Shown here one piece after another: positions 8,055-60,472 of a DNA stretch of 64,000 nt. The notes beneath the pieces are model-generated. The model saw only the letters and a program-made list of their open reading frames with translations, was not told the origin of the DNA and did not search any database. The first letter of the stretch is position 1, and every line of letters begins with the position of its first letter. Both the position numbers and the translations under genes were made by a program. Source of the DNA: Fusarium oxysporum f. sp. lycopersici 4287 (lineage: Eukaryota; Ascomycota; Sordariomycetes; Hypocreales; Nectriaceae); the NCBI RefSeq assembly GCF_000149955.1, contig NC_030988.1:2418029-2482028 (forward strand), in the 5' to 3' direction.

Positions 8055-8479
8055 GATTGATGGTTGAGGATCAATTGATTAAATAGAAATGTTATAAGTA
8101 AGGCATGATTTATTAACAATCTACTTTGCTAAACAAAGAGTCGAAATTAGCTAGAACTAGCCTAAATTTCATCCAGTAGAGGCTTGTACAATTGACTTAG
8201 GGAAACTGGTTTTTACAAATGCAGGATTGCCTGACCTTCATGTTCATAGATGCGGATATCAATCCAGTTATGGTCCGAAAATCGAAAGATATCTCTCTGA
8301 ATACCGATTTTTCAAAACGCCACAACTATCGCGTTACTCCTTCTCTATGTATCAAACGTCCAAGAACTTATAACTACGCTTTGGTTTATTTACCGAGCCT
8401 AGTTTAGCTAGATTTGGGCTTGAAACAGCACAGTATATTCTAACACCTACCTAGCGTGTCCCACACTTTATCCATACAA

Positions 8480-17880: not shown

Positions 17881-17991
17881 TGGATATCTTGTCAAAGAGA
17901 TTGAACGGGATAAGCACAGACTTTCGAAGATGGTCCGCTGCGGAAGACGTGGCTTGCTCCGAAAAGAACTCCGCTGCGCCTCTTTATCAAT

Positions 17992-20925
17992 ATGACAGGT
18001 CTCGCGACGTACACTGATGCTATTGTCACATTGCGGCCGAGTCAGCTCCAAAAGCTCGAGAGTCTCGGCTTGTACTACAATTCGCCAGAGCCAGCAATAA
18101 TTTGCGTCGAATGCGGCTTCGCCATTAACCCTACACGCGCGCCGCGTCACCCAGGCGACAAGCATCATATACCTAAGTCTGCCCGCCGTGGTTTGAAGCC
18201 ACTAATCTATTCTCTCAATCTTTCAAACCCAGAGACACTGCCACTGCGACCAAACGGCTCGCCGCCACACCCAAACCTTACGGTATATAAGGGTTCGGCC
18301 TGTAAACATTGTGGTCTTCGCTCTATCAGCGAAAAGGTCTTACTAGCCCATGTGAAGTCAAAGCACAGCAAAGACACCAAGCTCGCAGCTCGACAACAGA
18401 CGCGACACTGGCTGAGTGATCACATCCAGCAAGGCTTGTCATTTCAGAGCTGGTCGGCGAATGATATCCGAAGGTCATGGATTATCGCCGACAATAACCC
18501 TAGCCGCGGCTCTCTACCTTGTAGTACTCTCCTACAAGCTTGTCCAGACGCCGTTAAGCTGCTGGCCCAAAAGCTCTTTGCTGATGAGTGTGCAAGATTA
18601 GGGGGTGTAGAAGGAGGCCGTACGAGACGATATGACAGCGCAGCACCGGTATCTATCGCCTTACAGACGAATTGGATGCGGCGTACTGGCTGGGAAACGA
18701 TGTTCCAAGATACACGTCGTGATATCCTTGTTGCGCTTACGGAGTTACCTAATTGTAGGACCAACCAGCCTATGCCCCTGGGTATCCAGGGAGAAGAAGT
18801 AATCTATAGCCTAGCGCGAGACGAACGAAAATTGGCATCGATGATGGTAGCGCTTGATCGCCTCCTCGACCAATGCGGCGAGACCGTTCGGAGGACCGAT
18901 GTATGCCTGAGAAGATGGCTTCGTTCCAGGTTCCCAGACCGCCCCTACAAAGCGCCCTTCGAGCTGGTGGCAAAGCCGTCTTCTGAGAAGGTCTACCGGA
19001 AGGAACTAAAGCGCTTTATCTGCTTCTGGCTTCGACTGTCCCGACTATTACCGACAACTATGCGGGCAATTACAGGGCGAGGGTTGAACAGACATCAGTT
19101 TAGAGCTCTTCGTGAGCTCTGGGTGGATGGTGTCTGGCAGTCTGAGGAGCCTGCTGATATGGACCGTACAGATAACCAGGATTGAGGACAGAGTATGAAT
19201 GATCATGAGAGTGGAGATGATGGGGGTGAAGAAGAGGAGAATGATGATGATGATTATGGTGGTGAAGAGGATGAAGGCGAGGATGAAAGTGAATGTGAGG
19301 AGAGTGATGGACACGATACATCGAAATATGACAGCCAGAGTAGTGTGGCTATAGAAGCAGATGATCTCTCTGACGCCGAGTCGACTTCCGCTTGGTCTTT
19401 GGACAACCAGGAGCAACTCTCCCAAGACCCCGCGGCCGACGTCTTACTGCGCTTTTGTTACTTTGCTATCGCCGAGGACTTTGAAGGTGGGCTCGCGAGC
19501 TCGACGATGCTAGTGTACTTCAGTGCTGTACGCGGGCTGTCAACCCCTAACGGCAACGAATACCTCCAGCCTCACCGGTTCACCCCTATCCTAGCGAGAC
19601 TTATATACTGTTCTCGGTTGGTCTTTCTCGAAGCCGTGCTGCCTCATTTCTCACGTATCTACGGTGGTATTGCACGCCCACCGCGTCACGGGCTGCTGCG
19701 AAGGCTCAATGCGGCCCGGCGCGAGTACATGTGTGATGGCACGTTATCGCCCATGGGCGAATTCTTGAGTCTCTTGTCTTACGGCAACGCTCTTCGGCGG
19801 TCTCAAGGGTCCACTTTCCGATTCCATTGGAGCGATGACGGCGAGGTACTGTCCTGGAATGGCAACCAACGACTTTCGATGGTGGACTTTCGTGGCCTGG
19901 CTTGTAAAGTGCTGCGCTCAGTCACAGCATCGTGTTCCCGTTTGATGTATGACTGGGAGCCTACTCACCTCGATTTGTCGCTGATTCGAGATAATCTATC
20001 AACGACAACACCGGGCTACTCCTTCGTATCCGATCCCGTCAATCAGCTAACAGATGCCTACCCCGAGTTACTACTGAGAGCATGCATATCCCCGGTCGAC
20101 GGTCTGCTCCAAGAACAGGGTCAAAACCAGAGTACCCGGGATGCCAAAGCCGCTCGCGCATATTTGGAAGCTCACGATGATCACTTGAAGGGACTAATAG
20201 TGCTTTGTAACTTTGACGGCGGCCAGTGCGCACGGATTACGGAGCTGTTGACGCTAGAGTGTTTCAATACTGCTTCAAGAGAGCGAGGTATTGGCTTATG
20301 GGGTGCAAAAATGTGCTCCATAACTAGGCACCACAGGGCTCGTCTGGCCACTAACAACGAGTTTTATGTCATCCGCTTCTTTTCCAAACCTGTCTCTCGG
20401 CTTATGTTCCAGTATCTCGTCTATATACGGCCAGTGGCAATATCAATCTTGCGTGAATGTTTTCATATCGAGCATACCAACGCACTTCTCTTCTCCCCAC
20501 TCTCCCAGGTAGGCCAAAAACCAACACCTTGGACCGCCTCAACATTCACCAAGGAGCTTCGGCGGCATTGTAGTGCTGCCACTGGTATCCCATTCGGCAT
20601 CGGGGTCCAGATGTACCGTCAAATCTCAATTGCTATCACGGAACGCCATGTTCATGCCGCTGTTGCACGCTTCAATAGATTTGGTGATACGACCGGGACG
20701 GCGGGGCATGAAGTGGCTTATGCATGGCAGAGCGGACACAGGCCTATGCAGCGGCATACAACCTACGGTCTCGACGGCGCCTATCCAGATCATCTTCAGC
20801 CGGCGCTGCTCCGAGCTTATGAACGAGTGTCGGCAAGCTGGCAAAACTTCTTATGGGGATGTGATAAAAGTGGTGAGCCCAGGGTTTCTATCCCCATTTG
20901 GAGGCCGATTTCGCGCCCAGTTTGA
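17992..20925 (+). pseudogene. OrsD zinc finger plus tyrosine-recombinase-like protein, one in-frame stop
   Basis: The frame is continuous from the ATG at 17992 to 20925 except for a TGA at 19183-19185; both halves are in the same frame. The first half (397 residues) has two C2H2 fingers (C38, C41, H53, H58; C104, C107, H120, H125) typical of OrsD (formerly DUF3505). The second half opens with an acidic tract (about 19201-19310) and ends in a region like the tyrosine recombinase catalytic core: CARITELL with Arg347, MYRQIS with Arg475, SGHR with His515 and TTYG with Tyr524 (numbered from 19195). The His-Tyr gap of nine residues equals that of Cre-type enzymes. The recombinase call is inference from motif order. 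One nonsense change could separate it from an intact gene, so it may be a young pseudogene. Confidence 0.6.
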
Positions 20926-21159
20926 AACTTACGCAAGCCACTCATCATAAGCCTTACCACTATCTCCAAAAAGCGGCCTTTCATATCAGATTTAGGAGGA
21001 ATTCGCCTTCGAATAACAAGCGGACTGCGATTGATACCTTGATTTGTCGTCTTGTGCGCGGTACTATGTCGACTGAAGCAATAGCCACAGCCTAAGTAGC
21101 GAAGAATCACTGGTTATTGGGAATCGAAGAAGACGTCAACTCGTTTACCTGTGAACTAT

Positions 21160-21738
21160 ATGTCCAGACCCTTTCCTGACGGAGATGATAAGGCAGCCGA
21201 GCCCATAAGCGACGATGCACCGCTCAGAATCGGGCCGTTCGTCCACGTCGTCGAATTAAACCCTAGTTATATGCCTGGATTGCAAGACAGCTATCCTGGC
21301 TAGACAGGTAAAGGCACATCTTGTCGATCCCCTGCACCGTCAGCATCTTACACTTAAAGAACGCCGGAACATTAGTAACCAGATCCTGGAGATACTGAAC
21401 ATACTCAAGGATACAGATGACTTACAGCACTGGAAGTTTCCACCTCCGGAGGCAGAGCCAGTACCGTATCTCGAGCCGCCGCTGCATAATGGGCTAGGCT
21501 GCAATTCCTGTCGTTACATTGGACGAGATCTTCGCCGGATACGAGAGCACTACCGGCAAGAACATAGTGATGTTCTGGAGAGGGGTAACCCAGTAGACTT
21601 AAGCAGGCTAGACCAACAATCACACCTGTGGAGAAATGATGTTACCTATCAGCGCATGTTTAGAGGCGGTCAAAAAAGTTCCATTGGTTTGAGGTTAGCC
21701 GTGCTGAGGCGAAAGTATCCAAGAAGGGGAAGTGAATA
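21160..21738 (+). pseudogene. OrsD-family 5' fragment
   Basis: It begins MSRPFPDGDDKAAEP and reads to FVHVVELNPS. After a frame change near 21263 it continues VICLDCKTAILARQVKAHL and then GLGCNSCRYIGRDLRRIREH, the two OrsD zinc fingers, and VTYQRMFRGG. It ends at a TAG at 21736-21738, just before a run of 21 G. The fingers identify the family; the frameshift and missing 3' part show decay. Confidence 0.65.
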
Positions 21739-21743
21739 GCAAA

Positions 21744-21764
21744 GGGGGGGGGGGGGGGGGGGGG
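21744..21764 (+). repeat. Poly-G run of 21
   Basis: An uninterrupted homopolymer. Its length may be uncertain in the assembly. Confidence 0.8.
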
Positions 21765-21815
21765 AGGGCATTAAAGAGCTTGAAATCGGTTGATAATAAG
21801 CCAGATATAAGTATA

Positions 21816-22252
21816 ACGTGGTTGATAAGCATGCGACGCAGACAAGTAAGCGACGCACAGCACTGTACGGCTAAAAATAGCTTACTCTATAGGGATTTTT
21901 ACCTTAAATAAAATAGCTAAAAATCTAATAAAAATATTTTATAAAAGAGTATAGTTAGCTGTATTAAAATATATTTTTTTAATATTCTTTTCTATTTTAT
22001 TTTATATAGAAAAACTTAAAATACAGTGTATTTTACAGTGTAAATAGATTTTTAAGTTTATAGCTATAAATAATTTTTTAAAAAGTTTAAGAAAAATAGT
22101 ATAACTTAATTTAAGACTTACATATAAGCTATTAAAATTATAGCTATTATAGACTTAATTTAAGTTTTTTATAAGCTTTTAAAAACTGGATTTTAAGGTA
22201 TATAAGGTAGTGCGTCGCTTACTTGTCTGCGTCGCTCGCTTATCAACCACGT
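21816..22252. mobile_element. 437-bp MITE, 42-bp inverted repeats, TA flanks
   Basis: Left end 21816-21857 starts ACGTGGTTGATAAGC; the complement closes the element at 22211-22252. TA lies at 21814-21815 and 22253-22254. The 350-bp interior is very AT-rich and non-coding. The ends share the ACGT start and a central CAGACAAG with the Fot1/pogo elements of this window, so a pogo-type transposase is the likely mobiliser. Confidence 0.85.
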
Positions 22253-22414
22253 TAAAGGGTTTTACGTAACTAGAGTGCATTCAGGGTCTCAGAAAAATCC
22301 TTCTTCAGTATTCTAGGCTCGTCTATTAGGAGTTCGGTAAAACTGCTGCTTTACCTATTCTTTTACAGTCTATTTCCTTGTGAGTTTATCCCAGAGCGAA
22401 GCACGTCGTCTCGG

Positions 22415-23590
22415 CCCAATTGCCCATATGTGGGCGCAGAGTTGAGGCGGATTCGAGAACATCTCAGGGTTAAGCATGATTGGGACATGGAACTTAAAGG
22501 TGGACGTCGCTCAGCTGCCATGACAGATGAAGAAAGGAGTAACAGTCCGTGGAGAACAGGAGTCTGTTATCAACGACTATTCTCTAGTGGGCCGGGAAGC
22601 GAGCTATTTGAGGTGGCAAGAGGGCTGAATCTCGAATAATCAAGGGCCCAAGATAACGAGTCACAAGCCGCACTCCAGAGGGCCATTGATGCGTTCCAGA
22701 GCAAGGGTAAAGATATTCGAAGTCGAGAAGCGGAGCGTATCGATGAGGAGAATGACTTTACTGCGCCGAATCCGTGGCTTCGCCGGCTTGGTTCTGCTGT
22801 CCACTTGAAGGATTTTAGTGGGAAAAAGGACTTCTTGAGGGGCTTGATTGCTATGGAATACGAAGTGGATCCGGATGATCCAGACAAGTCAGACGATGCT
22901 CAACTGCGCTTCATACACATCGCATTCGATCGGCTGGTTAACCATGCCAAGGCCGTCATTACACCAGATATTGTATCTTGGAACGCTCTATTTGAGGTCA
23001 ATCGCAAAGAACTGATGAAAGAGAGGACAAAGCCATTCCATTTCCGGTTCAAGCCCGAGACACAGAGGAGGTATGCACTTGTGGTCAAGCAGCTACTTGC
23101 TTACATTGTCCGATGCATGTCTTTTGAGAATAAAGCCGATAGACCACCGTTCAAACTCAGCACACGGCAACAGAGAGCTTACGATGCCACGATGGAACAC
23201 GCAGATGACTTGACTGACGCTTGGAAAGAAAATGGGGGTGATCCAGAAGCGCCCGAGATTGTCAGACTTCTTGATCTACTAGAAACTGCCGTTCTCGAGC
23301 TATATATCTCTGTTCTTGACCATTTCACTAAGGACACGGAGTATGACAGCGTTCTTGTCAGCTTCTTGACTGTTCTTAGTGTGCGGGCAGACGGTACGTG
23401 GGAGGGCTATGAGGGTTTCACGCCAAAGCTTTCTGCCATTATGGCCATCTCTCGTCTCTGTATCATCAAATACGCTGTAGACCAACGAGCCAAAACTATC
23501 AAGCAAAAGATGCAACAGGGACAAAGCCAGGAGGAAGCAGAGAAGAATAGCCCAAGCCTAGTGCACCATACCAAAATCAATTCTACGTAG
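22415..23590 (+). pseudogene. OrsD-family fragment with middle domain
   Basis: The frame starts within an OrsD second finger (GAELRRIREHLRVKH) and continues past a TAA at 22637-22639 in the same frame through NPWLRRLGSAVHLKDF, FEVNRKELMKERTKPFHFRF, VKQLLAYIVRCMSFE and TPKLSAIMAISRL to a TAG at 23588. This is the conserved block that follows the fingers in large OrsD proteins. The N-terminus and any C-terminal recombinase or helicase part are absent. The TAA may come from CAA, a CpA-to-TpA change. Confidence 0.65.
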
Positions 23591-23755
23591 AATTCATTTG
23601 TTTTATGCCAAACAACCCAGGGTAGAATTGATTTTTACAGGGGAGTAGAATTTAATTTCTAGACCCACCTGACAGGGAGTAGGCTTGAGTTTCACAGGGG
23701 GTAAACTTCATTTATGCTAGGGGTAGACTTCATTTAGACCAGGGTCAATTAAATT
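23575..23755 (+). repeat. Degenerate tandem repeat, about six units of 21-36 bp
   Basis: Units follow the pattern GTAGAATTCATTT...CAGGG (variants GTAGAATTTAATTT, GTAAACTTCATTTA, GTAGACTTCATTTA), each closing with AGGG. It lies between two OrsD-family relics. Confidence 0.6.
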
Positions 23756-23919
23756 AATCACAAGACACGTAGTTGGTGAGAGGGCGCGAGTACGCGTAAT
23801 TCACAGTGTACATTTACTAGCAATAATCTTCTTAAATAGTTTATAGAGATCTTTCCCTTAACCAAGACCGAGATATAGGGAAGCATATACCTAATCGCAG
23901 TAAAATAAGTTTCTTGCTA

Positions 23920-24903
23920 ATGAAGACAATGGACCCTAGTAAGCAGTCTCAATCGTCCAACCCAATCTACCCATTCGTTATTCTTCCAGAATATCAACTT
24001 TTAGTGTGCGAGTTATGCGGATTTGCAACCCTCCCTAACGAGGTTAACACACACCTCAGGACAAAACACAATGACATTGCTCTGGAGTGCCGGCGCAAGT
24101 TGGTCGAGCAGGTCAACGCAATCCCAAATCTTCTCCAAAACCAGGCTAAACTTCAATTACCATACATACCGATTGAACCGATTTCTTGCCTTGCTGCACC
24201 GAGATTGGACGGACGGAAGTGCCGGAAATGTGGCTGTATGTTCCGCCAAGCCCAAAAGATGAGGCTCCATTGTATGAAGGAGCACCTCTGGAAAAACCCA
24301 CGAGAGAGAGGAAGGCCAATATCAGGTCTGGAGCCGGCTGCTGAGTTACCATGGATCGAGGGCGTCGCCTGTCAACGGTTCTTTCCTTCTCGGGAAGGTA
24401 GCAGATGGTTCGAGGTCCTTCAAGAAACTAAAAAATCGAAGAAGGGAGCAAGACTCGCAAAGTCATCTCGGCCTGATTTGAGCAAAGACGTCCGAAGCCT
24501 GAACTGTGAGGCGCGCGCCCATCTAAGTGATGTATTAGAGCGAGAGGAGAATTTTTTTGACCAGATGAATCAGCCACGCATGAGTGCCAAGGACTTGGGC
24601 AGCGATGCTCTTGCATCTACCGGCCTATGGCCAGAGAGAACTCAATGGCGGGTCATCTTTGAGAACGCTCGACGTGATATCCTACGAGCAATGACGCGGT
24701 TACCAGATCGACATTCATTGATGTCAGACTATGTTATGGCACAAGGGTGCCAGCAAGGGGATTTGTGTATTAGGAGCTCCTACGTGGATGAACAGAAAAT
24801 ATCGTGTACCATGAGGGCATTAGACTTGGTGATAGATCGCTGCGAGAACACAGTCCGTCACACAGGCCGCACCCTACTGTACGCAGTCGTGGCGGTAACA
24901 TGA
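23920..24903 (+). pseudogene. OrsD zinc finger protein, truncated by a dispersed repeat
   Basis: The 327-residue frame has two C2H2 fingers (CELCGFATLPNEVNTHLRTK, then a His; and CRKCGCMFRQAQKMRLHCMK, then EH) and a tail (TQWRVIFENARRDILRAMT, ALDLVIDRCENTVRHTGRT) matching residues about 220-310 of the protein at 17992. Right after the last match (about 24870) the sequence changes to a repeat also found at 42680-42733, and the frame stops at 24903. No frameshift is visible before the break. Confidence 0.65.
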
Positions 24904-24965
24904 CAGGATACAACGCAACTGGCCCGTGCACGTTGCTTGGTTATCCATAATTGCTTATTTCAGAT
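24873..24965. repeat. Dispersed repeat R, copy 1
   Basis: Contains AACATGACAGGATACAACGC and CTGGCCCGTGCACGTTGCT. Inverted copies lie at 41764-41822 and about 42657-42733. It is probably the end of an unrecognised transposon. Confidence 0.6.
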
Positions 24966-26562
24966 AATGTCATTACAGTTTTATTTACCCCCCGATTTCT
25001 CTTTCTCTTTTATTTCCTCTTCTCTGATTTAGCTCTATTAACAGTACCACCTGGGGCTCGCCAGGTCCTATACCCTACGATTATACTATAAGCAACAATA
25101 GTCAGATCCGGATCCCGTCATGCCTACCTCTCTTTACCCTACTGTACCAATTACCCTCGGTATCAGGTCCTGATACACGATTTGATGGTCCGTGCCCTAA
25201 GAGATGCACTACGTTTCCTGTTTTTGACCAATCACCATATTGTCTCTTCTCTCCTTTGCCGTAAGTACAGCAATGACAGTGTGCTTCATGACAGTGCAAT
25301 TGTTGGTTGCATCGGGACATCTGAAAGTGGAGTGATTGCATATTCTCGACCAACGTCGACAAAAGGCCATCCATGAAGTTTGCACTCAAGCCTTGAATGT
25401 TGACTGTCCTTTCCTTGATCAAGCGGGGTAGTAAGACATGTGGGACGGACAGCAGGCAACAAGCTCGATGACAGGGCGGATAAATGCGGCTGTATGCCAG
25501 TTGTCATCTAGCGCCCCTCGGTTATGATAGTATTATACGCTAGAAGCTAATGGTTGGGGAGTTAAAAAGCCAACCTCGCAATATTAGAACTCGTTTAGTC
25601 AAGATCGGCCCGCCCCGGTGTAGATCCTTTAGCGGCGAGTGGAAGTGGAAACTCAGTGGTAAATTGTGCTGCCTTGATCATCTGGAGATCACCCTGTCAG
25701 CCCATCATTACTCAACCTCGGAATGGAAGAGCCTACTGATGATCCTGTAGGAATAAAGCCATCGGAAGACTCTTTAATTGGTGCGGCTGATGAATCAAGA
25801 CTGTCAATTCTCATAATAAAGCCTTCTGCTGCAGGTGGTCATTAGCTTAGGTACGAAGAGATCAATCGGCAATGCTGATTGATATCTCTGAGATATCAAT
25901 CATGTCTACAGAGGCAGGGGCAGCTCAAGCCCTTGCCTAGCTTGCAAGGGCTTTCGGCAAGGGCAGCCACGACCTTTTAAAAAAAGGAAGGGAAAGGAGG
26001 CTATTTACAGCCTATTTCAGGAAATTCGCGAGGTCCAGTAAGCAGGTACGGTTGTAAAGTATGTGATGTAGCGATTTGTAACAATGCTACTGCTGGTACT
26101 TATATCACACACTAATTTAGGTGTGTGCGAAGGTACCACCCGTTGCGGTCATTTTGATTGGCCCCTCGCCCCTGTCGTGACTTTGTGGATGCCTTGTGCC
26201 GCTCAAAGAGATACATAAATGCTAAAACTAATTATTAATTCGGAGTATGGCGCGTACTATGTCTCGCTGAGTGGAACTGACCCCCGCCACTGAGACGAGA
26301 CTTCGGTCAATGATTCGCAGGAGGCGAAGCCTGCAAGCCAAGACAATGTGATGAGGCTTGGGAAGTGCATTCCTTACCGCCGAGGCGCCCCGCCTTGGCT
26401 TTGCATTGAAAAGTCGAGGTACTTTGGATGCTTCAGTAGTTCCAGAGCACGTGCATACAGCCGCATCTGCGGAGCTGAAAAAAGCTCATGGCCTTTTCAA
26501 TACAGAGTACGTGGCATTTCCATTGTCTAGATATAGGTTGGGACATAGGCAAGAGTTGCACA
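24966..26562. other. Gene-free stretch with palindrome and MITE remnant
   Basis: A 27-nt palindrome (TGATTGATATCTC, T, then its complement) lies at 25876-25902. The segment about 26115-26213 is a one-ended remnant of the 1374 MITE family (CCCCTGTCGTGAC, then CTCAAAGAGATA). No gene is supported. The ATG-less frame upstream of 26563 is probably the 5' untranslated region of the next gene. Confidence 0.5.
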
Positions 26563-27417
26563 ATGGCGACCAAGAACACTTACATCCTTGTTTCCGATCT
26601 CACCACCCCGCCACCTCCATATGGCCCAGTTGATCTCGGCCACATCTTGGATAATCCAACAACTTTGAACCCGCTGAACGCTGGCCCAACACAACGCCTG
26701 AAGATCTCGTCAGATGAGATCTATGGGCCGCACAAAATGGAAGGCTTTACCGCTACACGTAAAGAGTTATTCAGTGGGAAATTTGGCATCTGGGCTAAGT
26801 TTCTCTCTACAGTCCTTGGTGTTGGCGCAAATGCGGGGGTCAATACTGAACTCGACGATGACACGGTTTACAGCTTCGGTTCCCTCGAAACAATGTTTTT
26901 CAACCCGACCGATGACTACATCCGCTCAAGCATGACTGTGCCTGTGATAAGGTCCTTCATGCGATCGGCGAGATTTGCTCTACCGGTGTACATGATCACC
27001 GGTATCAAAGTCGGCCGAGAAGTATCTGTGCAATCTTCCCATCAAGAGCGGCGTGGTTTTGACATGTCTACTGGAGCTGGGCACCCTGGGAATCCAGCTT
27101 CAGGCGGACTTGAGATGGGTACCCACTCTACGAAAGCACAGGGGTTTTCGTTCGAGCGAGGCGATGACTGTGTTGTGGCATTGCGGTTGCGTAAGATCAC
27201 ATATAAGTCTGGAGAAGTCAAACACAAGGTGGAAGTAAAGGGCGCTACCATGCAAGATGGTTCCCAGGTCCTCAAGGAGGATGAGACTCCTGAGCTGGAT
27301 CTGAGCGATGACATTAGATGCGAGGTTGCTTTGGATGACTTCGACGATGAGATGGTAGTGGTTGATGGAACGTCTTTTGAGGATGAAGCTGAGTCTAGAT
27401 GGATTATTCTTGCATGA
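26563..27417 (+). CDS. Gasdermin-like pore-forming protein (candidate)
   Basis: A single-exon protein of 284 residues from the ATG at 26563 (MATKNTYILV); an in-frame TTG further up lacks family support. It belongs to a fungal conserved family whose N-terminus reads YILVxDLTTPPPP and LGHIL. Strand order resembles the gasdermin N-domain: an early hydrophobic strand, an amphipathic stretch, VYMITGIKVGREVSV, then a Gly-rich loop and CVVALRLRKITY. A short acidic tail (about residues 236-284) could be the inhibitory segment that fungal gasdermins lose on proteolysis. It converges with a subtilisin-like protease gene 100 bp downstream, as in the het-Q1/het-Q2 pairs of Podospora. The gasdermin call is inferred from fold order and context; the family and intactness are clear. 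Confidence 0.6.
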   Translation: MATKNTYILVSDLTTPPPPYGPVDLGHILDNPTTLNPLNAGPTQRLKISSDEIYGPHKMEGFTATRKELFSGKFGIWAKFLSTVLGVGANAGVNTELDDDTVYSFGSLETMFFNPTDDYIRSSMTVPVIRSFMRSARFALPVYMITGIKVGREVSVQSSHQERRGFDMSTGAGHPGNPASGGLEMGTHSTKAQGFSFERGDDCVVALRLRKITYKSGEVKHKVEVKGATMQDGSQVLKEDETPELDLSDDIRCEVALDDFDDEMVVVDGTSFEDEAESRWIILA

Positions 27418-27516
27418 ATGCAGAAAGTCTGAAGCGATCCTGGGCTATCCATAGCTTTCAATTCAGAAATTTCCCACCTGAAGACAACCACGTTTGATTT
27501 GAGATCGATTGATAGT

Positions 27517-30422
27517 TTATTTCCTAAGTACTTCCTTGATCTTAGCCCATACTGTATCCGAATCCGCGGCCCCATGCCAAAGATTCCAAGGTGCCAGGTA
27601 ATCATAACGGTCCGTCTGACATGCCATAAGTTCGAAGACTCCTTTCATGCCGTCGTAGCCGTAAAGCTTCTTACGCTGATCGACATCTAACACTCCATTT
27701 CTTTGCAATACTCCCGCCTGGTCCAATATGTTTGCAGCAATTCCTACCGCAATGGGGGTCGAGTAAGATGACCCGCTGAGAAAGTTCTCCTTTCCATCTG
27801 TATAGCCACACGGCACCGCTACCCCTAGCGTGGTAAAATTGTTGTTGTTTTGAAGAGGAACAGGGTCCATTCCACTTTTGTTTCCGTTCCCATCCGTCGC
27901 GTGTATGCAGAAGACTGTCGTTGCGTTGGCCGGGTACGTTCTACGCTTGTTGGCTCCGTAGTTGGATGCCGCGGCAAATAAAAGCTTGTTCGACAAATAC
28001 GCACTACGGATCGCTCGGTCCATGTCACCTTTCCATACAGGATCTGCGACAAATCCAAATGACATGGAAACAATGTCCGCACCAATATCACCAATAGCCC
28101 ATTGAAAAGCCTTCCCTTCGTGTTAGTAGGTCCTTGATCACAGTATACAACTCAGGTACGTGCCTCTAGAATCGTTCTATCAGAAACCTCAGTCGTCATT
28201 TTGTGAGATATCTTTCCCACATAAACATCAGCTTCTGGTGCGACTGTTAGAAGAAGCCCTGCGACTCGGGTTCCATGGCCTTCTGCATCGGCGTCCGAGT
28301 CTGCCGTGAAGTTTCGAGTTTCCCTTATCGGATTTCTATAGCTGTTGATCTCCCGTGATCGATTGCAGCATTCTATCCTACGCCGTAAAGCACGGATACT
28401 AGGATCATCAAGATTTAAGCCGGTATCTAGAACCGCGATCTTTACCCGTGGAGCTTGCTCAGATCGTGAGACATGATGTGTTCTGAACTCCTCAAATCGT
28501 TTCAGGAAGGACCTTGCAAAGTTCTTTCTAGGATAAGGACTCAGCAAACGTACAAAGTATTTTGGTGTAATAGGAAACAGACTTCTCTTCCGACGAAGCT
28601 TCCGAATAATCACTGAACTGCAGGAGCCTGATTGGAAGGCTTGGGGCCTCATTGACAGAAGAACAGGCGTGTTCTAAACTGTCCAAGTCTTTTGATCTTG
28701 CTGTTTGCTTTTGGCTGTTGGCTGTGTCCAGAAAAAATGTCTCGTTCAAATCCAGGTCCTGAGAACCAGGGGTCACATTGTTAAACCTTGCGACCTCTCG
28801 GCCTAAAGGTTCTACAATCTCTTTTTGGATAACACGTCTGCACTTTATTAGCTCATTACCAACTGTAAGTTCCTGCAATAGTTTCTGAAATCTCAGACAA
28901 CCAAGAATGGCCCGAGAATAGTCCGTCGAGAAATAATCTTTGCATCTTTTCTCGAATCGTAGGTTTAATGTCCTGAGAAGGCTGAATCTCCCGTCTTTCG
29001 ATTTTTCAACCACAATGGGTTTGCCTTCGGCTATCTCAAAGAGCAACTTGCCAAAGGCAAGTATAAAGGGATATCTGTGCCAGCTGTCTTCGATATCGGA
29101 TTTGTAAGTCCTCCCGTCAAAGAAGCAGCAGATATATGGTTGATGAATATTGTGAACTTTCTTCTTGTCAGTCTCGTACAAAAAATATAATTCTTCTGCA
29201 GTCCAGTCCTTTTGGATCCATTGACTGCAATAAAGTTGGAGCAGAGACTGGGCGAGGTTGAATGCTAGAACAAGCTTATGTTTTTCTGGGAATGTGTAGC
29301 GGTTCGCCAATAAACCCTTGTCCATTAGATTGGAGAGCGTAATAGCAGGGACTGCGTTGGAATATGGCGTCCCTGTCTCTTCGATCGACTTATTAAAAAT
29401 TTGCTGCTCGCAAACATGGACTTCGACAACACCAGCGAATTCGTATGTCTCACGAGCAACTTCACAAATACTTCTGATGCAGCCTGGCTCCCCAGGAGGG
29501 GTGCTGAGAGGCCTGGAGGAAGTCAGTCTCAGGTTTATTTTAAGCCTGGCCGTAGGCGGCACTTACTTGCAACCCAAAAATGCGCATCGTACTTCTTGCC
29601 AAGCTTCTTGTAGGCTGCATATTGCTAGCAGGATATCTACCCGGTCCCCTTGGTCTTCCATGCCGGAATTTGGGGAACCTTTGAGATGGAGAAAGGCTTT
29701 GTGATTAGAACTCCGTGGCTCACAGACTTTGAGATGATGTTGAAAGGCGTCAAGTACCCCAGTAGTACAGGTATAAAACGACTCATGAAATTGTACAGGT
29801 GTTATCGGTGCATCCATCGGTGGCTGGACAACTGACTCTGCAGGGCGATCACCTGTAGTCCTTTTAATGTCTTCAAGGATACCCGAAATACGGCGGCGGG
29901 TGGCTTTGAACTTGATGGGTTGTTGGTGAAGAGAAAGATATCGAGCGCAGGTATCGATAGATGGTTCTCGTTGGATTGAAAGACGCAATGCATTGAGCTT
30001 TGGGAACATGACAGCTACTTCCGTCGTGGACTGGCAGACTTGTCAGCACTCAGAGTACTACCCAAGGTTCTTTCACAATGTATTGCTGAAACAGAACCGC
30101 GCCAGGCTACAGATCAATACTTGGAGAATAATATGAATTCACGTACTGTATTCCAGAGGGGTATGTCGTCGTTCACAAGATTTTCGAGATTCAAGAGAAG
30201 ACTTGCCAGCAGCAAGGCAATTCTGTCAAGCTTTTCATCGCTTAGTGTGTTTTTATTTGCGAGGTGTATAGGAATCTCTCCCATGTATACCGCCAATAAC
30301 GCTCCGGTTTCTTCGATTATAATGCGTTCTGCATCATTTGAACTTGCATTGCATGACCAAGGAAGAGGGGAGGCAAAAAGACGAGATACATCTGAGAGCA
30401 ATGTTTCGTACTCTAAAATCAT
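27517..30422 (-). pseudogene. DUF7580-subtilisin (S8) protease, frameshifted
   Basis: Exons 30422-30147, 30030-29567, 29512-28160 and 28115-27517 join in phase except for one extra base. The N-terminal half is a DUF7580-type region (LVLAFNLAQSLLQLYCSQW, then FILAFGKLLFEIAEGKP). The C-terminal half is a subtilisin with the full triad: Asp in VAVLDTGL-like VKIAVLDTGL, His in EGHGTRVAGLL, Ser in LSGSSYSTPIAVG, plus AAASNYGAN for the oxyanion hole. The total would be 896 residues. Near 28560 a run of four A (minus strand) shifts frame between SYYTK and YFVRLLSPYP; one base fewer restores it. This could be a real null or a base-calling error. Such proteases cleave partner proteins in fungal cell death. 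The start is uncertain: 30422 is the first in-frame ATG, and an exon further up is possible. Confidence 0.6.
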
Positions 30423-30654
30423 CTTCGAGATTAAGAAGCTTCCATAATAAGAATACAACAAAGATGGTAAAAGCAGAAAGTTCAAAAAGGTTGCTACATA
30501 TGTCTTCACCAACCATCAGCTCAAATTGAGGCCATTGAGGGGTAAGAACTTTTGAAAAGCCATTCGAATATTTTCAGAAGTATCGGTACCAACTGCGTCA
30601 AGGTATCGAGAGATTCACTGCCTCTTAGCGCTTACGGGCTGAATGCACTGACAG

Positions 30655-33600
30655 CAAATCCTGCATAAACAAGGTCATGCTATTGTCTTTTGGTGGGTCC
30701 GTCTGCCACCAAATGGATCACCAAAAGTAACCTTTACTAATATTACGAATCAGGCTGAAAAGAGGGGTGCTGGTCAGTACATACAGTTGTGCCGTGAATC
30801 TCTAGATCATCCTCATCTTATTTCGGTGGTACGGGAAGCTCTTTGCAAGCCTTATCAGAATATCATATTCGTATCACAAAAATTTGATATGTCAGAGATC
30901 TATGATCTATCCCAGCGATGCAGGTCTAGATTTGCGGACATTTTGCATGTCCCAGATGCGAGAAGCCTTCCAGTTATTGAGGTTCTACGGGATGAGTTTG
31001 AAAAATGGGCGTCGTACCTTGGCGTCTTTGCTCACGAGAGTGTGTGCCTGGACACTCGATTGATGTACAGCGACTCTCTTCGAAATCTGGTTTTACAACT
31101 GCTTCAAATATCAATGCGTAACCTAGAACGCAGTGAGTCCATGTTGATTGTTCTGCATGATATCACTTACTTAGCTGATTCCTGGTTCCACCATAGTTGT
31201 TGAAATCGAGGATCAAAAGACATACGACTTGAGCGACACTTCACAGCCATCAGTCGTTGCCGAAATGGAATCGGAAGATACTGCAAGTATTTCTTCTCCA
31301 CTGATTGAGTCCTTAAAGGCTCTTGAAGAGGCTGTCCATGGCCTTCATCGTTTGGGTTTGGCAATACGCCATTCATCATCGACGAATTTGACGCAGAGGA
31401 TTACTTCGTTCATTGAAAAGGTTGACAACGGGTCAACAGAGGGCTTGGTTTTCTCCCGGCTGAAAGAGAAGCTCATCGATATACCCAAGCGGAAGGGAAA
31501 GCCTGGGGCTTCTATCACGCTCTGTAAGCAATTGGCCGTGTCCATTGCTTTCCGATATTTTCGTATTCAATACCGTCACAGTCATCAACTGAAGTTAAAG
31601 ACTCCGAGACAACATGAGCCAACGTCCGAAGCAACTGACGAGCCTGTTAGCAAATCTATAGATGTGTCTGCACAGAAATCTAACCTAGGTTCACGAAAAC
31701 CACTTCAAATACGAGTCAATCAGCTTATATCTGACATATCAGTCACCGAGCCCACAATTCCAGACTCAAGTAAAGCATTGGAAAGATACGAATCTTCCTC
31801 GCCTAGATCTAAGGGAGCTACGTCTATTGTTTCTGTTCAGCTGCGAGATGCCATATACCCTGATATTCCTCAAGCAACAGTTACCTGTTGCCCATATTGT
31901 GCACAGAAGTTACCAGCTTCTGCCAAGGAGAAAAGAGCTTGGGAGTAAGTATGCATGGAATATATATCTCACGACTTCGACCTGAAACCTCATAGGAGAC
32001 ATGTTGATGATGACATCGAGCCGTATACTTGTATATCAGAAGAGTGTGTCGATCCACCTCAGCTGTTTTCTCGATACGACGCGTGGGCTAGGCATATGGA
32101 GGACAAGCATTCTTCTAGATGGACGGAAGAGGTCCACAAGCTTATCAGCTGGTGCTGCGATATTGATCACGAGGAGCAGTATTTTGACGATGAAGGCGAC
32201 TTCGATGAGCATGTCAAAGCCGATCATCAAGATTGTGGAACAAAAGACGAAATTTCAGAACTCAAAGAGTGGTGCGAGCTCCGGCGAGCTCGGCCTCCAT
32301 ACACATGCCCGATATGTGGTTGTGTACCTGAAGACATTGCAACAGTTGTCCCATGGCTAATTCAGCGCTCCTCGTCGATACATAACTCAGAACCACATCA
32401 AATTAGCAGCGACTCCGAAGTCGAGTTACGACGTCGCCTATTCCGCCATATCGCTTCCCACCTTAAAGGCCTCGTCTTGATGTCAATTATCTCTCTTGAC
32501 CGGCCGAACTCTTCGCGCTTTTTTGCTTTCACGAAGGAGTCGCTATATGAGGACTTACTCGATAGCATAAGATCACAACTCAAAGATGGCCTTGAAAAGA
32601 AAAATACGACAGAAAAGTTCGCCACGCGAGGAATGGTCAAGCATGTCCTTTCGCCGTCAAATCTGGAGGCTGTTTATGAAGCCTTGAAAGCCGCGAATGC
32701 AAAAATGCCAACGGACACTGACCAAGTCAACGCACGTAAATTTGCGGAAAAGGTCAAGGAAAGGAAACTTCAACATTTCTTGGCAGTTTTAATATACGCC
32801 AAGTGCTCAATCGACGCCACAAAGGAATTTCTGGATAAGCTAGTGTTTGGAAATGAGGCGGAGTTTCAAGAAGACCAAGAGACACCAAACCTCTTACCAG
32901 CCAGCAAGGAATTTCTTGAACGTCTCTTCTCACGGCCGTCTGATAGACGAGACTTTTTTGATGAGCAGCGCACCTTCTGCACCCTGGTGCTTGGGAGTCT
33001 AGATGTTGTGACGATTCGCAGCGATGACCAAATATCACTGCCATGGCTGGAGCAAGAGCAGATCGGGACCGGAGCTTTTGGCGTTGTATATAAAGTCACG
33101 ATCCCGAAGGCCCACTTAACCACGGATGGGAATTTCAGTCAGCCTACTTCGAGACTCATGACCGTCGCTCGCAAAGACTTTATCTGCGCCGACACCGCAA
33201 AGGCAAGCTTCAAGAAGGAGGTCAAAGCAATCAGAGATATCTTCAGCGGCCAGGCGACGCATGACAACATCCTCAAGAGTTTTGGCACTATTGTCATAGA
33301 AGGAAAGCCATCGACCTTTAGTCTTCTCATGCCATTGGCAGATCTGGACTTGCAGGAATATATGAAGAGAAATCCGGAAATACCTCCTGGCGACACGAGT
33401 ACACGAGAGAGCATCATTCGCTCTGCTAGAGAGCTTGCGGACGCCCTTGATTTTCTTCACAGGAAGATGACTACATCAGAGGGTGATCCGATTGTTTGCT
33501 ACCATATGGACCTCAAGCCGAGCAATATTCTTATCTTTCACGATACTCGCAGAAGATCAGAAGCTTCCAATCGTGACATGATATGGAAGCTTAGCGACTT

Positions 33601-35653
33601 TGGTCTCTCGAGAGTGAAGACAAGAACAAGGTCACAAGCAGATCTAAGTAATCTTTTCAGGACACGCTTCAAAGACCAATCCAGCCAAGCCTCAGCGACT
33701 CAAAACTTCCGAGGTACAGACATGTTCCTACCAGTCGAAGCAGAACTAGAAGGCAGGACAATGAATGGGAATAGTGATATTTGGTCATTTGGTTGTATTC
33801 TCAGCCTCATTTTCACATATATGGGAGAAGGATACAAAGGCTTCGGAGGCTACAGCGAGTCACGACTTTTGTACAGCAACAAAAACGTCGACTATTTTTA
33901 TCAGTACAACAAATCCAATATCGGGTTCGAGATTAACCGCGGAGTTGTTGAGCAGCACGAAAAGTTGATAAAATTGGCCGCCGAACGGAGTCCTTTGGAA
34001 GGAGGTGCTGTGAGATATATGCTCAAGTCCCTAGAGAGTGAAGTGCTCTTGATCGATCAGGGCAGCCGGTGCGGTGCAGATAGAATTGTCGAACTTTTGC
34101 AGACGACACTGAAGAAGTACAGCACCGTGGAAAGCGAGTTCAGCATCACCGAAAACGACTCAATGCCTCATTCCCTAGTTCAAAAGGCACAAGAGAAGGT
34201 TTTAGGGTAGGTTCATAATCAATATGATAGGAAAAGAATGACTAATAAAAGATAGCCTTTTCCGACGCAAGAGCAAGCAGTCACTCGCACAGACAAATAT
34301 TCGTCGATGGAGACTAGAAGTGGATAAGAAGCTAAAGTACAAAGACTGCGTGTGCTCGCCAGACGGTAGTAGGGTAGCCTACTGGACCGGCAAAACCATC
34401 ACACTATTCGACGACCGCTCTGGGTTAGCCAATGCAATACCGTACCGCAGGGTCGATAGTATGGGTTCAAGAATGAGTTCAACGGACAGTGAACGAGAGT
34501 CAACCCTGACAGTCGCTGGACAGTATTCCCTTGCAGATTGGAGTCGCTCGTGGAGATCAGTGAGGCTAACTAACAGATACTTGATCGCAGCAACGACAGA
34601 TGAATTGTTCAATGTAAGTACAGGCAGTTATACACTACTAGATTGTCTCCAAGCTTAACCTACTAATCTCTCACAGTGTTACATATTCGACGTCGAATTT
34701 GACCGTAAGCTGAACATGTACAGCAGAGTAACCCTGTCACATCCAGAAATTCATATGCTGGCAGTTTCTCCTGACAGGAACTCCTTGGCCTGTATCCTTC
34801 AGGATAAGAGAGGCCGTCCTTCATTATTCACTGGCAGAATTGTATTCGATCCAGCTCCTCAGCCTGCCCCAGCGGCAAGGTAAATGACTCCTAGAAATAT
34901 TGAGCAATCCTAACATATGATTTAGCATCTACTCGGACACGGCGAAGAGCGAACACAAAGATGCTGGTGTTTGTATCGTTGATCAAAAGGCTACCCTCCT
35001 GGAATTGCCTCCAGGCGAGATCACCTGCCTGACCCTTGAAACGAGAAACCAAGGTTATATAATTGTTCGCAATGGTTCAACTCTATCGGTGAATGTATTC
35101 ATCATCGAGCCTTTAGATATGAAGCAACAAGATTTAATGCAATGGGTTAGTATTGCTGAAACTATATCATCATCTTCTAACAAGACGTCTCCAGTCCATG
35201 AACAATAATGTCGAAAGATTATTCACCGACATGGCGTGCCTGCAGAGTGATAATCAGAGCCGAAGATCCGAACTCATCATAGCCTCACAAGCGGAGCGAC
35301 TGTTCCATCTCAGATACGAAGGTTTTGAATCGAGTCCAACGGTAGTCATCCATCCGCCCATCCAAAACTATCGTATTCTGAAGATCGCAACTGTCGAGCA
35401 TTCGAGAAAGATTCTTGCTTTGGGGTCGCAATCTGGGAGCGACCATCTTCTTCTTCTAAACATTGAAACCCGAAGTCCAGATGTTCGGCCGAAGATTACG
35501 AAGCTGGCAGATATCGGTGTATCAGCGGGTTATCAAGCAAAGCTGAGTGTTTATTGTGAGGGAAATGAGACTATTGCACGTATCATGGTGGACATACTTG
35601 AGGGTCCGTATTTGGTGCTTCAGATAGATGTCAGCAACTCGCTCGGTACATAG
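30655..35653 (+). CDS. C2H2-protein kinase-WD-like protein
   Basis: Exons ..31132, 31197-31944, 31996-34206, 34256-34613, 34677-34879, 34926-35145 and 35195-35653 join in phase over about 1,550 residues. Order: an N-terminal helical region found in many fungal signalling proteins; zinc-finger-like CCPYC and CPICGC regions; a kinase domain with IGTGAFGVVYKV, VARKDF lysine, HMDLKPSNIL, KLSDFGLS and a GTDMFLPVE activation end; then WD-like segments (CSPDGSRVAYWTGKTITLFD, AVSPDRNSLACIL). Key kinase residues are present, though HRD reads HMD. It is divergent from the protease gene with only about 130-230 bp between them, so co-regulation is possible. The first exon is unresolved; 30655 is an acceptor, not a start. 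Confidence 0.65.
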
Positions 35654-35681
35654 ATTTAGGTAATAGGAATCCTCTGCTAAA

Positions 35682-36258
35682 TTACACAAGCTCTGGCCCC
35701 TTATCAAGTTCCTTCTTTCTCGTCCTCGTCTTGATATACATTTTTATTGAAGGTATCTTCCAGGTTATTTGCTTCAGCGGTGTTTTCTGGATCAACAAAT
35801 GATAAAACATATAGGTCAAGACAGTCATAGCCGCAGAGCAGAGAAAGTAAATCCAAAGGATGGGGGTTCCCACGATCTGACGTGACTCGTTATCGAAATC
35901 GAAGAAGTTCATACCAAAGAAAGACTGTGACTAATCAGCGTTATATATGGCTGGAGAGATGGGCAGTTGAAACCTACTGCCACGAAAGATGCAGGCAAGT
36001 ATAGTACAGTCAGGGTAGTAATAACGTTGTTCAGTTTTAGCATACTGTTGTTTTGCACCTTGGCGTTCAATTGTTCCCGGAAGGATAAAGTGTTAGCCAA
36101 AAGCTGTGTGATCTTCTGAACTCGTTGTTGTAGACATTCTGCTACTCTGGTGTAGCCTGCACATTCGCGGATATGTTGCTGAAAGGCTGCCAATGCGGAT
36201 CGATTCGGTAATCTTCTCGTCTCCACTATCGGTCATCTCACGACAAAGACATAATAGC
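35682..36258 (-). pseudogene. CorA-like transporter gene, 3' part
   Basis: The C-terminal part encodes SMLKLNNVITTLTVLYLPAS, then across a 53-nt intron (35925-35977) SFFGMNFFDFD and a second hydrophobic segment. The YLP...GMNFF block and paired membrane helices are the mark of fungal CorA-like Mg2+ transporter proteins. At 36258 the gene is cut by the hAT element; the rest is at 39348-39900. Upstream of NRSALAAFQQHI the frame meets a TGA near 36230, so decay beyond the insertion is likely. Confidence 0.7.
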
Positions 36259-36380: not shown

Positions 36381-36797
36381 CTGCCTCTTAAATTGATATC
36401 GAGATTGATATCCACCGAAATACCGCTCTCTGATTGGCTGAAAAGATCTTATCAATCGATTAGATGATGAAAAGGCTTCTGTCGCATATCACCACTAGGT
36501 TCGTGCGACTGGATATGAAACACGGGGCGTACCTTGGGGTCGCGTATCCGGTTTCACATCTGGCCTGTCGCATAATCCTAACATGAGCTCAAATAGCTGT
36601 TCCCGAACACATGGCTGTTCGATTTCTTTTGTTCTTTAGATAACTCTCATCAATTGACGGGTGCCATCAATGATCCCTGTGGAGCCAATTGTCTGACAAC
36701 TTCTCTCAATTTCAACATCAGCACCACCATCTCAGTACTCGTTCAAACGGCCCTAGGTATTCTAGCATAATTAGCTTATCCAGGTGATTTATCGACC

Positions 36798-39155
36798 ATG
36801 GCATCATCTCAGACCACCGCCGCCTCTACGCCCTCGATTTCGGACCAGCCCATTACTGGGACGTCTCTGGACTTTTCCCTCTTCTTCAAAGCAACGTATC
36901 CTGATGAGGACACCCAGAACACCACCGGCGGGTCACGTAAGCGCAAATCCAGGGGTATGGCGATGTATCGATGTCTCCATTGCCCTGCCGATAAGCCCTG
37001 GGCGAATCGGAAGCGGGACAACGCATGGCATCACGCCCGGCGGTGCCATGCCGATATTATCTCTTCCCTCGATCGCACGCTCATTGGGGGCAGTTCTGAT
37101 GTTCTAGATGATGAAAGGGAAGCCACACGCCCTCGGATTGATGCTTTCTTTCCCTCTCGTTACTCGGATGTCTCTCTCCGCCGTATGTTCGACCGCGATC
37201 GGTATTTAGATGCAATAATCAGCCTAATCACACGCCGCCGGCTTGCCTTCTCAGCAATTAACTGGGATGAGATGCAAGAGATTATGCTAGCAGCTAATCC
37301 TGCTATAGAGGACCTTTTAGTGACCAACCGAAGTGCTCTAATGCGACTGATTGATGCCACATATGAGTTATATTCTTCTCAGCTCATGGCAACTCTTGAA
37401 GCTTCCATCTCAAAGATCCATATCCTCTCTGATCTCTGGACATCGCCCCATCGCCATGGGATACTCGCCATCTCTGCGCGATGGGTTGATCAGGATCATC
37501 GGCCACAAAGGGCACTGCTAGCGATGCCGGAATGTCTCTATAGCCATAGTGGTGAAACCCAGGCATCTCTAATTATCGATACACTGGCAAAGTACGGCAT
37601 TGCTTCTAAAGTGGGCTACCATGTAGGGGATAATGCCACTTCAAATGATACCTGCTTGTCTTATCTCTCACGGCGGTTACGAGACGACTATGGGGTACGA
37701 TAGCCCTTCCCTTATCTCTGGATTAGGATTAATCGGTTGCTAGTTGACGTTTGATCCCTCTAAGCGCCGTATCCGCTGTGTCGCCCACATTATTAACCTA
37801 TCCCTTCAAGCATTTCTTCTCGCGTCTTCAAAAGAGGCACTAATCGCCGCTCTTGATGCCACCGATGATACCTCAAACGATCAGTTGTTTGCACAGTTCT
37901 ACGGCACCTTGCACGACGCCGGACAGACAACAAGAACAGATGAAGCCCATCAGAGAAGAAGAGCTTTGCGAAGAGGCAATCGTATACTTGAGAACTTCAC
38001 TGGATGGCAGCATATCGTGCCCCTACGGAAAGTACACAACATCGCTGTCTGGATACGTAAATCTACGCTTCATACGGCTATATGGGACGATGAAATAAAG
38101 CTCCGACTAGGTATAGATAATGCCACACGCTGGATTTCATGGTATCGATTGTTGGATAATTTTCTGCGTTACCAATCCCGTGTAAAACAGTTCCTAATTG
38201 AACATGATAGAGAGCTTCAAGACGATATCCTGCTAGCTTCAGAGTGGGAGTTTATTGAACGGACGCATCGTTTCCTACAGCCGTTTGCCTCAACTACGTT
38301 GTTGGCCGAAGGGGCGCGATCTACACTCTCCCAATCACTCTCGATAATGGATGTTTTATTGCGACAGTACGAGAAGTATAAGGTCGGTGGCGATGTTTTT
38401 TCTTTTATCTAATTGATCGGCTAACTAATTGTCTTATTTAGGAGCTTTATAGTTCAAAGGAAAACCATGATCCCCACATGGTACACTGCATCGATATGGG
38501 CTGGTTCGTACTTAATAAGTACTACACCTTATCAGACCAGACACCTGTATATGCCGCCGCACTCCTTCTCGATCCCTCGAAACGAAGAAAATACATTGAG
38601 CGGAATTGGCAAGAATCCTGGCACGCGCCTGCTATTGCTGCTGCCCAGCAAATTTGGCTAGATGAATATAATGCCGCGCCAATCCCAGAATCCTTGCGGG
38701 TGCCTCTAGATGTGTCCTCTTCCTCTGGGAGGCAGCACAACGAGCTGGATGAGTTGTTGAGCGATATTGCTGTTACTGGTCCTATCTTAGACGACGCCGA
38801 TGACTTCGAAACCTTTATTGATGCACCACCGACCCGAATAACTGGCTCTCCTCTCCAGTGGTGGCTACATCGAGATCAAAGGAAAGCATATCCGCGGTTA
38901 TCCCGCATGGCAATTGATATCCTCTCAATCCCTCCTGAATCATCTGATGTTGAGTCTCACTTCTCATCGGCGCGGCGTACGCTATCATGGGATAGAGAGA
39001 GCATGACCTGCGAGAACCTGGCGAAGGTTGAGTGTGTGGGCAACTGGATGTGCGAGGGTATCATTGTACCCAAGTCTCACGGTGGCAGGGGCGTTATTTC
39101 CAGCGTTGCTGTTGAATTTAGCGTTGAAACAGAGGCAGAGGACTTTCTAGATTAG
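36798..39155 (+). CDS. hAT transposase (copy 2, intact)
   Basis: Exons 36798-37694, 37744-38382 and 38442-39155 give 749 residues. Introns are 49 and 59 nt; the second has the unusual donor GTCGGT. A BED finger (CLHC ... HHARRCH) at residues about 57-82 binds DNA ends. The catalytic region contains LSDLWTSPHRHG, NDTCLSYL and CVAHIINLSLQAFLLA. The C-terminal dimerisation domain reads LQWWLHRDQRKAYPRLSRMA. It has no stops or shifts, unlike copies 1 and 3. The start is the first ATG after the left terminal region, and the finger follows directly. Activity is plausible but not shown. Confidence 0.9.
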
Positions 39156-39347
39156 GGTACTTTCTTGTTCTTTCTTCTAGCCTACAAGAATTATATGTGG
39201 TTTATCTGGATATCAACCTTGCTAAAGTGGCTATGTTGTTGTATGGATATCTACCTGGATATATCGATATCCAGATAATTTCTCCCACTTATCTGGATAT
39301 CGATATAAGGGCCAGAATTTCGATGGATATCGATATACGCAGGTCTG

Positions 39348-39900
39348 ATAATAGCTCTTCAAGGACGTCCCTTGAAGCTGCCAACATAGTGGGGACTTGT
39401 ACTAAGCGGGTCTCAAGAAATGCCAGCTCAGTGAGATGATGGTATTCCGTCTCGGTCAGTTCCTCAATAAAGGTGGCTACCGCGTTGTTTGCCTGCGAAC
39501 AAATCAGTCAATTAATCAACTTCGTTGGATATACCTACTATCTGAATCAACAATTTCTCCAAATAGTCGTTGTAAAGTCTCCACGCAGAGAAATACGTTC
39601 TAAAAAGCTCTTTGTGTAGCCAAAAGAAGTCCTGCTGGATGTTCTGAGGACCTACATCATTATTCCAGCTCCAGATTCAACTGAAAGAGGACTTTGACGC
39701 GTCTTGATTGGGCCGTTATCCCTGTTTTCCTCAATCTTTTCAAAGCGGGCTACTCTGTAGTAGTCGGTGGCCGAGACTCCACTTTCAGCGACTGGTAGGG
39801 GAGCTTCCTCATCTGCATGATAGGAGCCTAGGTCCTGAACCCTGGACGGTTCTTATAGAGTTTGAGGTGGTAGCTCAAAGCTTCGCAGCGTGTGTAATAT
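39348..39900 (-). pseudogene. CorA-like transporter gene, 5' part
   Basis: Read on the minus strand, NIQQDFFWLHKELFRTYFSA is followed by an intron (about 39492-39540) and then FIEELTETEYHHLTELAFLE and RDVLEELL up to the target duplication. This is the soluble domain of a CorA-like protein. Further 5', pieces such as FEKIEENRD and KVLFQLNLE lie in different frames, suggesting extra indels or unresolved introns. No start codon was fixed. Confidence 0.6.
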
Positions 39901-39910
39901 ATGTAATATA

Positions 39911-60375: not shown

Positions 60376-60472
60376 ACCAGTGTTAAGAAAGTGACCTTGT
60401 CTGCACCAAGATCCTTAACAAGCGCACAACAAACGACCCAACCTGCGCTTCGCGCAGCCGCAAGCCGCGGCG

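What the first reader, a model, noticed from the sequence alone, without database searches (positions are those of the whole stretch)
26563..30422. Gasdermin-like protein gene paired with a DUF7580-subtilisin gene
A 284-residue protein with gasdermin-like strand order and a short acidic tail converges, 100 bp apart, on a protease with a complete subtilisin triad and an N-terminal DUF7580 region. Podospora het-Q1/het-Q2 is a known gasdermin-subtilisin pair whose protease cleaves the tail to start cell death. The pairing here, with DUF7580 as regulator, would be another two-gene cell-death module.
Basis: partly seen in the sequence, partly recalled or inferred. Interest (0 to 1): 0.85.

Follow-up and report, generated by a model that had tools for sequence, protein, structure and literature searches.

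The report
Fungal gasdermin–protease cell-death gene cluster
A Fusarium-type fungus carries a pore-forming gasdermin gene beside the gene for a protease that probably switches it on, a known kind of cell-suicide pair, and here the pair comes with a third neighbouring gene that recurs at related sites in the same genome.

The parts
26563..27417 (+). Fungal gasdermin gene, 284 aa, no intron seen
   Evidence: Profile match to RCD-1 and HET-Q1 in PDB; AlphaFold model, Foldseek and VIA-align
27235..27414 (+). Acidic C-terminal tail, residues 225-284, presumed inhibitory piece removed by the protease
   Evidence: 19 acidic, 4 basic residues; 70 of 70 relatives net acidic; inhibitory role inferred from HET-Q1
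27418..27516 (.). 99-bp tail-to-tail spacer between the two stops
   Evidence: gaps of 75, 108, 63 and 67 bp at the other four loci
27517..30422 (-). DUF7580-subtilisin gene; exons 30422-30147, 30030-29567, 29512-28583, 28527-28160, 28115-27517 (878 aa)
   Evidence: Gene model; the exon 3/4 joint is uncertain
28786..29793 (-). DUF7580 (PF24476) region
   Evidence: E 1.2e-46 and 2.3e-11 on two exon ORFs; 209.8 bits in the genome search
27718..28445 (-). Peptidase_S8 (PF00082) region with Asp591, His641, Asn731, Ser796
30652..34210 (+). Third gene, head-to-head with the protease: ORF pieces 30652-31203, 31175-31948, 31949-34210; C2H2-like region (by eye) and C-terminal kinase; exon joins not modelled
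   Evidence: Pkinase E 1.8e-16; relatives beside DUF7580 genes

Best explanation
This is a regulated cell-death module of the fungal pyroptosis-like kind. The 284-aa protein is a gasdermin held inactive by a short acidic C-terminal tail. The convergent gene encodes its dedicated activator, an intracellular subtilisin restrained by an N-terminal region that includes DUF7580. Once switched on, the protease removes the tail, and the pore-forming domain oligomerises in the plasma membrane and kills the cell. The divergent third gene (C2H2-like region plus a variable C-terminal domain, here a kinase) is the best candidate for an upstream sensor that acts through DUF7580. SHOWN: gasdermin homology and fold, subtilisin homology and triad, recurrence of the pair and of the third gene in this genome. 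INFERRED: cleavage, inhibition by the tail, pore formation, the relay role of DUF7580, the sensor role of the third gene.
For: Gasdermin: profile and fold matches. Protease: DUF7580 and S8 matches, catalytic residues. Pairing: 6 of 7 distinct gasdermin loci within 3 kb of S8; 5 of 5 DUF7580-S8 genes tail-to-tail with a gasdermin, against 1 of the other 29 distinct S8 loci having a gasdermin within 3 kb. At C69 the DUF7580-S8 gene was known before its gasdermin was found. FDECE_13548/13549 adjacent tags; P0007 and P0079 on contigs of the same length. Third gene at 5 of 5 pairs. Precedent: HET-Q2 cuts HET-Q1, and about 80% of fungal gasdermin genes are clustered with proteases (review passages).
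Against: No experiment. The second S8 exon alone is below Pfam's cut-off. The exon 3/4 donor is unusual. The model is of middling confidence (mean pLDDT 65.6), and most of the tail is uncertain. One of 7 gasdermin loci (C2) has no S8 or CHAT match nearby. RCD-1 shows that a fungal gasdermin can work without a protease. At C9 the third gene is on the gasdermin side.
Confidence: 0.75

Rival explanations
1. A plain two-gene HET-Q1/HET-Q2-type pair: the DUF7580-S8 protein is the whole sensor, and the third gene is a neighbour with its own job.
For: The published pairs are two-gene clusters. The third gene is on the other side at C9, and C2H2-like relatives also occur away from DUF7580 (4 of 13 distinct loci).
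Against: The third gene is beside 5 of 5 pairs and beside 9 of 9 strong DUF7580 loci. Three of those nine loci supplied the queries, so the independent count is 6 of 10 C2H2-like loci.
Confidence: 0.35
2. The gasdermin is activated without cleavage, as RCD-1 is by its rival allele, and the protease acts elsewhere.
For: RCD-1 is the nearest fold and works without cleavage.
Against: It has a 60-residue acidic tail and sits tail-to-tail with a catalytically complete S8 at 5 loci.
Confidence: 0.08
3. The copies are decaying passengers of a large duplicated block rich in transposon-like genes.
For: The block is four-fold and near-identical. The unusual exon 3/4 donor could instead be a broken frame. 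The third gene's open frame is 183 aa in the C70 copy against 753.
Against: The gasdermin frame is intact and identical in 4 of 4 copies; the triad is kept; gasdermins 78-87% identical occur in other Fusarium.
Confidence: 0.1

Closest known systems
HET-Q1/HET-Q2 of Podospora anserina (fungal gasdermin and S8 protease)
   Same: Gasdermin of similar size (278 against 284 aa) with a short C-terminal tail; S8 protease partner; HET-Q1 is in the profile hits (9uv9)
   Different: HET-Q2 is 388 aa, so it has no room for the N-terminal DUF7580 half seen here; the head-to-head third gene is not mentioned in the passages I saw
Q2L protease-gasdermin clusters surveyed by Clave et al. 2022 (known to me through reviews)
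   Same: Same two-gene logic; about 80% of fungal gasdermins are clustered with proteases; some proteases fused to predicted kinase-like domains
   Different: Whether DUF7580 or the third gene was noted there could not be checked; the paper is not held
RCD-1 of Neurospora crassa
   Same: Best sequence and fold match
   Different: RCD-1 is activated by its rival allele, not by a protease
Bacterial gasdermin-protease defence operons
   Same: Gasdermin next to its protease; weak profile match (7n50, E 0.015)
   Different: Different domains, operon layout and kingdom
HeLo-DUF7580 proteins, such as window 53679-55463
   Same: DUF7580 shared: hhalign E 7.7e-8 between the two forms
   Different: There DUF7580 follows a HeLo domain; here it precedes a protease that would act on a separate pore protein

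Membership tests
Fungal gasdermin | Sequence homology to RCD-1 and HET-Q1 | tested here: met
   Profile E 1.5e-23 and 4.3e-17; the six PDB sequences found up to E 10 are all gasdermins
Fungal gasdermin | Gasdermin pore-forming fold | tested here: met
Fungal gasdermin | Membrane pore formation and killing | not testable with these tools
   needs an experiment
HET-Q1/Q2L gasdermin-protease cluster | Gasdermin gene adjacent to a protease gene | tested here: met
   99 bp apart; 6 of 7 distinct gasdermin loci within 3 kb of S8
HET-Q1/Q2L gasdermin-protease cluster | Catalytically complete S8 (or CHAT) protease | tested here: met
   Asp591, His641, Asn731, Ser796; same columns invariant in 23 relatives
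HET-Q1/Q2L gasdermin-protease cluster | Protease removes a short C-terminal piece of the gasdermin | not testable with these tools
   Acidic tail present; cleavage not tested
Pseudokinase (reading of DUF7580) | Homology to protein kinases with lost catalytic motifs | tested here: inconclusive
   DUF7580 of the proteases against 3 window kinases: E 0.073, probability 0.8%. HeLo-DUF7580 links to DUF7580 (7.7e-8) and to kinases (3.3e-5). No Pfam kinase model among the families matched by 23 proteases at E 0.5

The most novel reading that the evidence does not exclude
DUF7580 is the hub of a modular fungal death chassis. A gene pair, usually head-to-head, joins a C2H2-like protein with swappable C-terminal domains (kinase, TPR-CHAT, ankyrin, PI-PLC) to a DUF7580 protein with swappable output (subtilisin, nucleoside-phosphorylase-like, or only an N-terminal helical region). 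It gains a tail-to-tail gasdermin when the output is the subtilisin. The window is the three-gene sensor-relay-pore version.
Probability: 0.45. Interest if true: 0.8.

Novelty: new variant of a known kind. Interest (0 to 1): 0.6.

Why it matters
A 2025 review calls the stimuli that activate these protease sensors a major open question (PMC12881547, passage). Recurrent trios with one shared relay domain and interchangeable partners and outputs would make that testable: which partner is needed, and whether DUF7580 relays the signal. In the Pfam copy used here no gasdermin model matched any of the 70 family members, so such modules are probably under-annotated.

Tried and rejected
Single-sequence searches of Pfam and PDB with the gasdermin found nothing useful; only the family profile did. 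The first AlphaFold model (16 sequences) was poor (pLDDT 54.3) and was replaced by the 70-sequence model. Three other introns for exon 3/4 were set aside for the 55-bp one; that choice is inference. DUF7580 as a pseudokinase stays unproven.

Papers: DUF7580 gave 0 papers. The listings showed no report of a DUF7580-S8-gasdermin trio, but the library holds open-licence papers only and Clave et al. 2022 (PMC8851545) is not held, so absence from print is not shown. I saw passages of PMC12881547, PMC10989679 and PMC10197012; all other papers as listings only.

Rows left out: the family alignment A2 has the window protein and 69 of the 77 proteins (left out: P0001, which is the window protein itself; P0004, a close copy; P0007, P0008, P0011, P0048, P0073, shorter; P0019, longer). 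Alignment A3 has 23 of the 27 proteins (left out: P0079, without S8; P0102-P0104). P0084 was dropped.

Limits: the genome searches are six-frame, ignore introns and score only the best candidates, so counts and absences are lower bounds. The 34 S8 loci were collapsed by hand from 46 matches, the 30 CHAT loci from 42, the 18 DUF7580 loci from 25, and the 13 C2H2-like loci (E up to 0.01). Three of these 13 supplied the queries and were chosen because they lie at gasdermin loci; without them 6 of 10 lie near a DUF7580 locus. A fourth search with another part of the C5 third gene found only itself and the C1 locus. The 59-bit line between strong and weak DUF7580 loci was seen after the fact, so the Fisher value is not a fair test. 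The binomials assume even gene spread. Of the 30 CHAT loci, only C5 has the C2H2-like region within 10 kb, and there both are in one ORF. Names such as C2H2-like and helical are by eye: Pfam found no zinc finger in the window's ORF at E 1 and only weak ones in relatives. Synteny outside this genome rests on locus tags and contig lengths alone.

Full report
WHAT IS THERE. The window is part of a 61.2-Mb assembly in 71 contigs; its closest named protein relatives are from Fusarium. The plus-strand ORF 26563-27417 encodes 284 aa. The minus-strand gene 30422-27517 has five predicted exons and 878 codons. Their stops are 99 bp apart.

THE PROTEASE. DUF7580 and Peptidase_S8 are both present. Asp591, His641, Asn731 and Ser796 are in place, and those columns are invariant in 23 relatives. 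Of these 23, all have S8 and 22 have DUF7580; the other, P0084, is an NB-ARC-TPR protein. The nearest solved proteases are intracellular serine proteases (7y6m, 7xr8). Whether DUF7580 is a degenerate kinase is not settled: direct comparison with three window kinases is weak (E 0.073), although it resembles the DUF7580 part of a HeLo protein in the window (7.7e-8), which in turn resembles kinases (3.3e-5; Pfam 0.0039).

THE PAIR RECURS. Genome searches with four gasdermin queries gave 10 matches at 7 distinct loci, four being identical copies of the window gene (C3 twice, C6, C70). Six of the 7 loci are within 3 kb of an S8 match. Five are convergent with a DUF7580-S8 gene, with gaps of 99, 75, 108, 63 and 67 bp. 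At the sixth (C10) the S8 protein is divergent and continues into a NPHP3_N-type NTPase and WD40 repeats. The seventh (C2) is a short match with a stop inside and no S8 or CHAT match nearby. All 5 DUF7580-S8 genes found have a gasdermin; of the other 29 distinct S8 loci, one has. The C69 case was a small blind test: its DUF7580-S8 gene was known, and the gasdermin turned up beside it.

A THIRD GENE. Head-to-head with the protease lies a gene (30652-34210) with, by eye, a helical N-terminus and a C2H2-like region, and a kinase domain at its end. Relatives of the C2H2-like region turned up at 13 distinct loci in three searches (collapsed), and pieces of these genes match each other. Nine of the 13 are within 10 kb of a DUF7580 locus; leaving out the three loci that supplied the queries, 6 of 10. 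Seen from the other side, of 18 distinct DUF7580 loci the 9 with at least 59 bits all have this neighbour (8 head-to-head; at C9 it sits on the gasdermin side, divergent from the gasdermin), and none was detected at the 9 weaker ones. All five gasdermin/DUF7580-S8 loci have it. The C-terminal parts differ: kinase (window), TPR-CHAT (C5), ankyrin repeats (C9), PI-PLC in the next ORF (C69), none recognised (C11). The four other strong DUF7580 genes have no gasdermin match nearby. Two end in a phosphorylase-superfamily domain (C11:2138694 and C1:208511). Two (C2, C5:883849) have only a helical-looking N-terminus before DUF7580; Pfam found no HeLo domain in the C2 one, and the C5 one was not scanned.

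MECHANISM. Most likely: a signal, then the C2H2-like sensor, then release of the DUF7580-restrained subtilisin, then removal of the gasdermin tail, then pores and death of the cell, probably in defence or non-self recognition as for HET-Q1. The sensor and relay steps are inference from gene order; cleavage is inference from the HET-Q1 precedent; homology and fold are shown.

KNOWN OR NEW. Reviews report that about 80% of fungal gasdermin genes are clustered with proteases, mostly S8, that some proteases are fused to kinase-like domains, and that such pathways are often two- or three-gene clusters. So the pair is a new member of a known kind. The recurrent third gene, and its sharing with gasdermin-free DUF7580 genes, I did not find in print in the searches named, but the primary survey could not be read. 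I therefore rate the whole a new variant of a known kind.

Noticed in passing
window 19180-36178 and copies at C3:3.70 Mb, C6:2.01 Mb, C70:0.14 Mb: Near-identical four-fold duplication (99.9% or more over the longest 14-17 kb alignments). CHAT and HeLo-DUF7580 matches at equal offsets suggest a block of about 200 kb.
   Followed up: partly
window 53679-55463, minus strand: HeLo-DUF7580 gene (HeLo 1.2e-18, DUF7580 26.7 bits, just under the cut-off of 27), also four-fold in the genome.
   Followed up: partly
L011, L006 (C10:79.8-82 kb): A gasdermin divergent from an S8 protein with a NPHP3_N-type NTPase and WD40 repeats, in line with the NLR-type proteases of the reviews.
   Followed up: partly
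L025, L026 (C11:2.138 Mb, C1:0.209 Mb): DUF7580 fused to a phosphorylase-superfamily domain (PF01048), head-to-head with a C2H2-like gene and without a gasdermin match.
   Followed up: partly
G000:C70:138824-139318: In the C70 copy the third gene's open frame is 183 aa against 753 in the window.
   Followed up: no
window 43020-52429: Ankyrin-repeat and protein-kinase genes near the module; relation unknown.
   Followed up: no
window 2551-3951, 7488-8078, 16617-20925, 36771-41696, 58714-62107: ORFs that look like transposon and helicase genes by eye; not searched.
   Followed up: no
P0049 (Orbilia oligospora homolog): Listed with a precomputed Pfam accession PF26164.1 that did not appear among the families; possibly a newer model for part of this family.
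   Followed up: no
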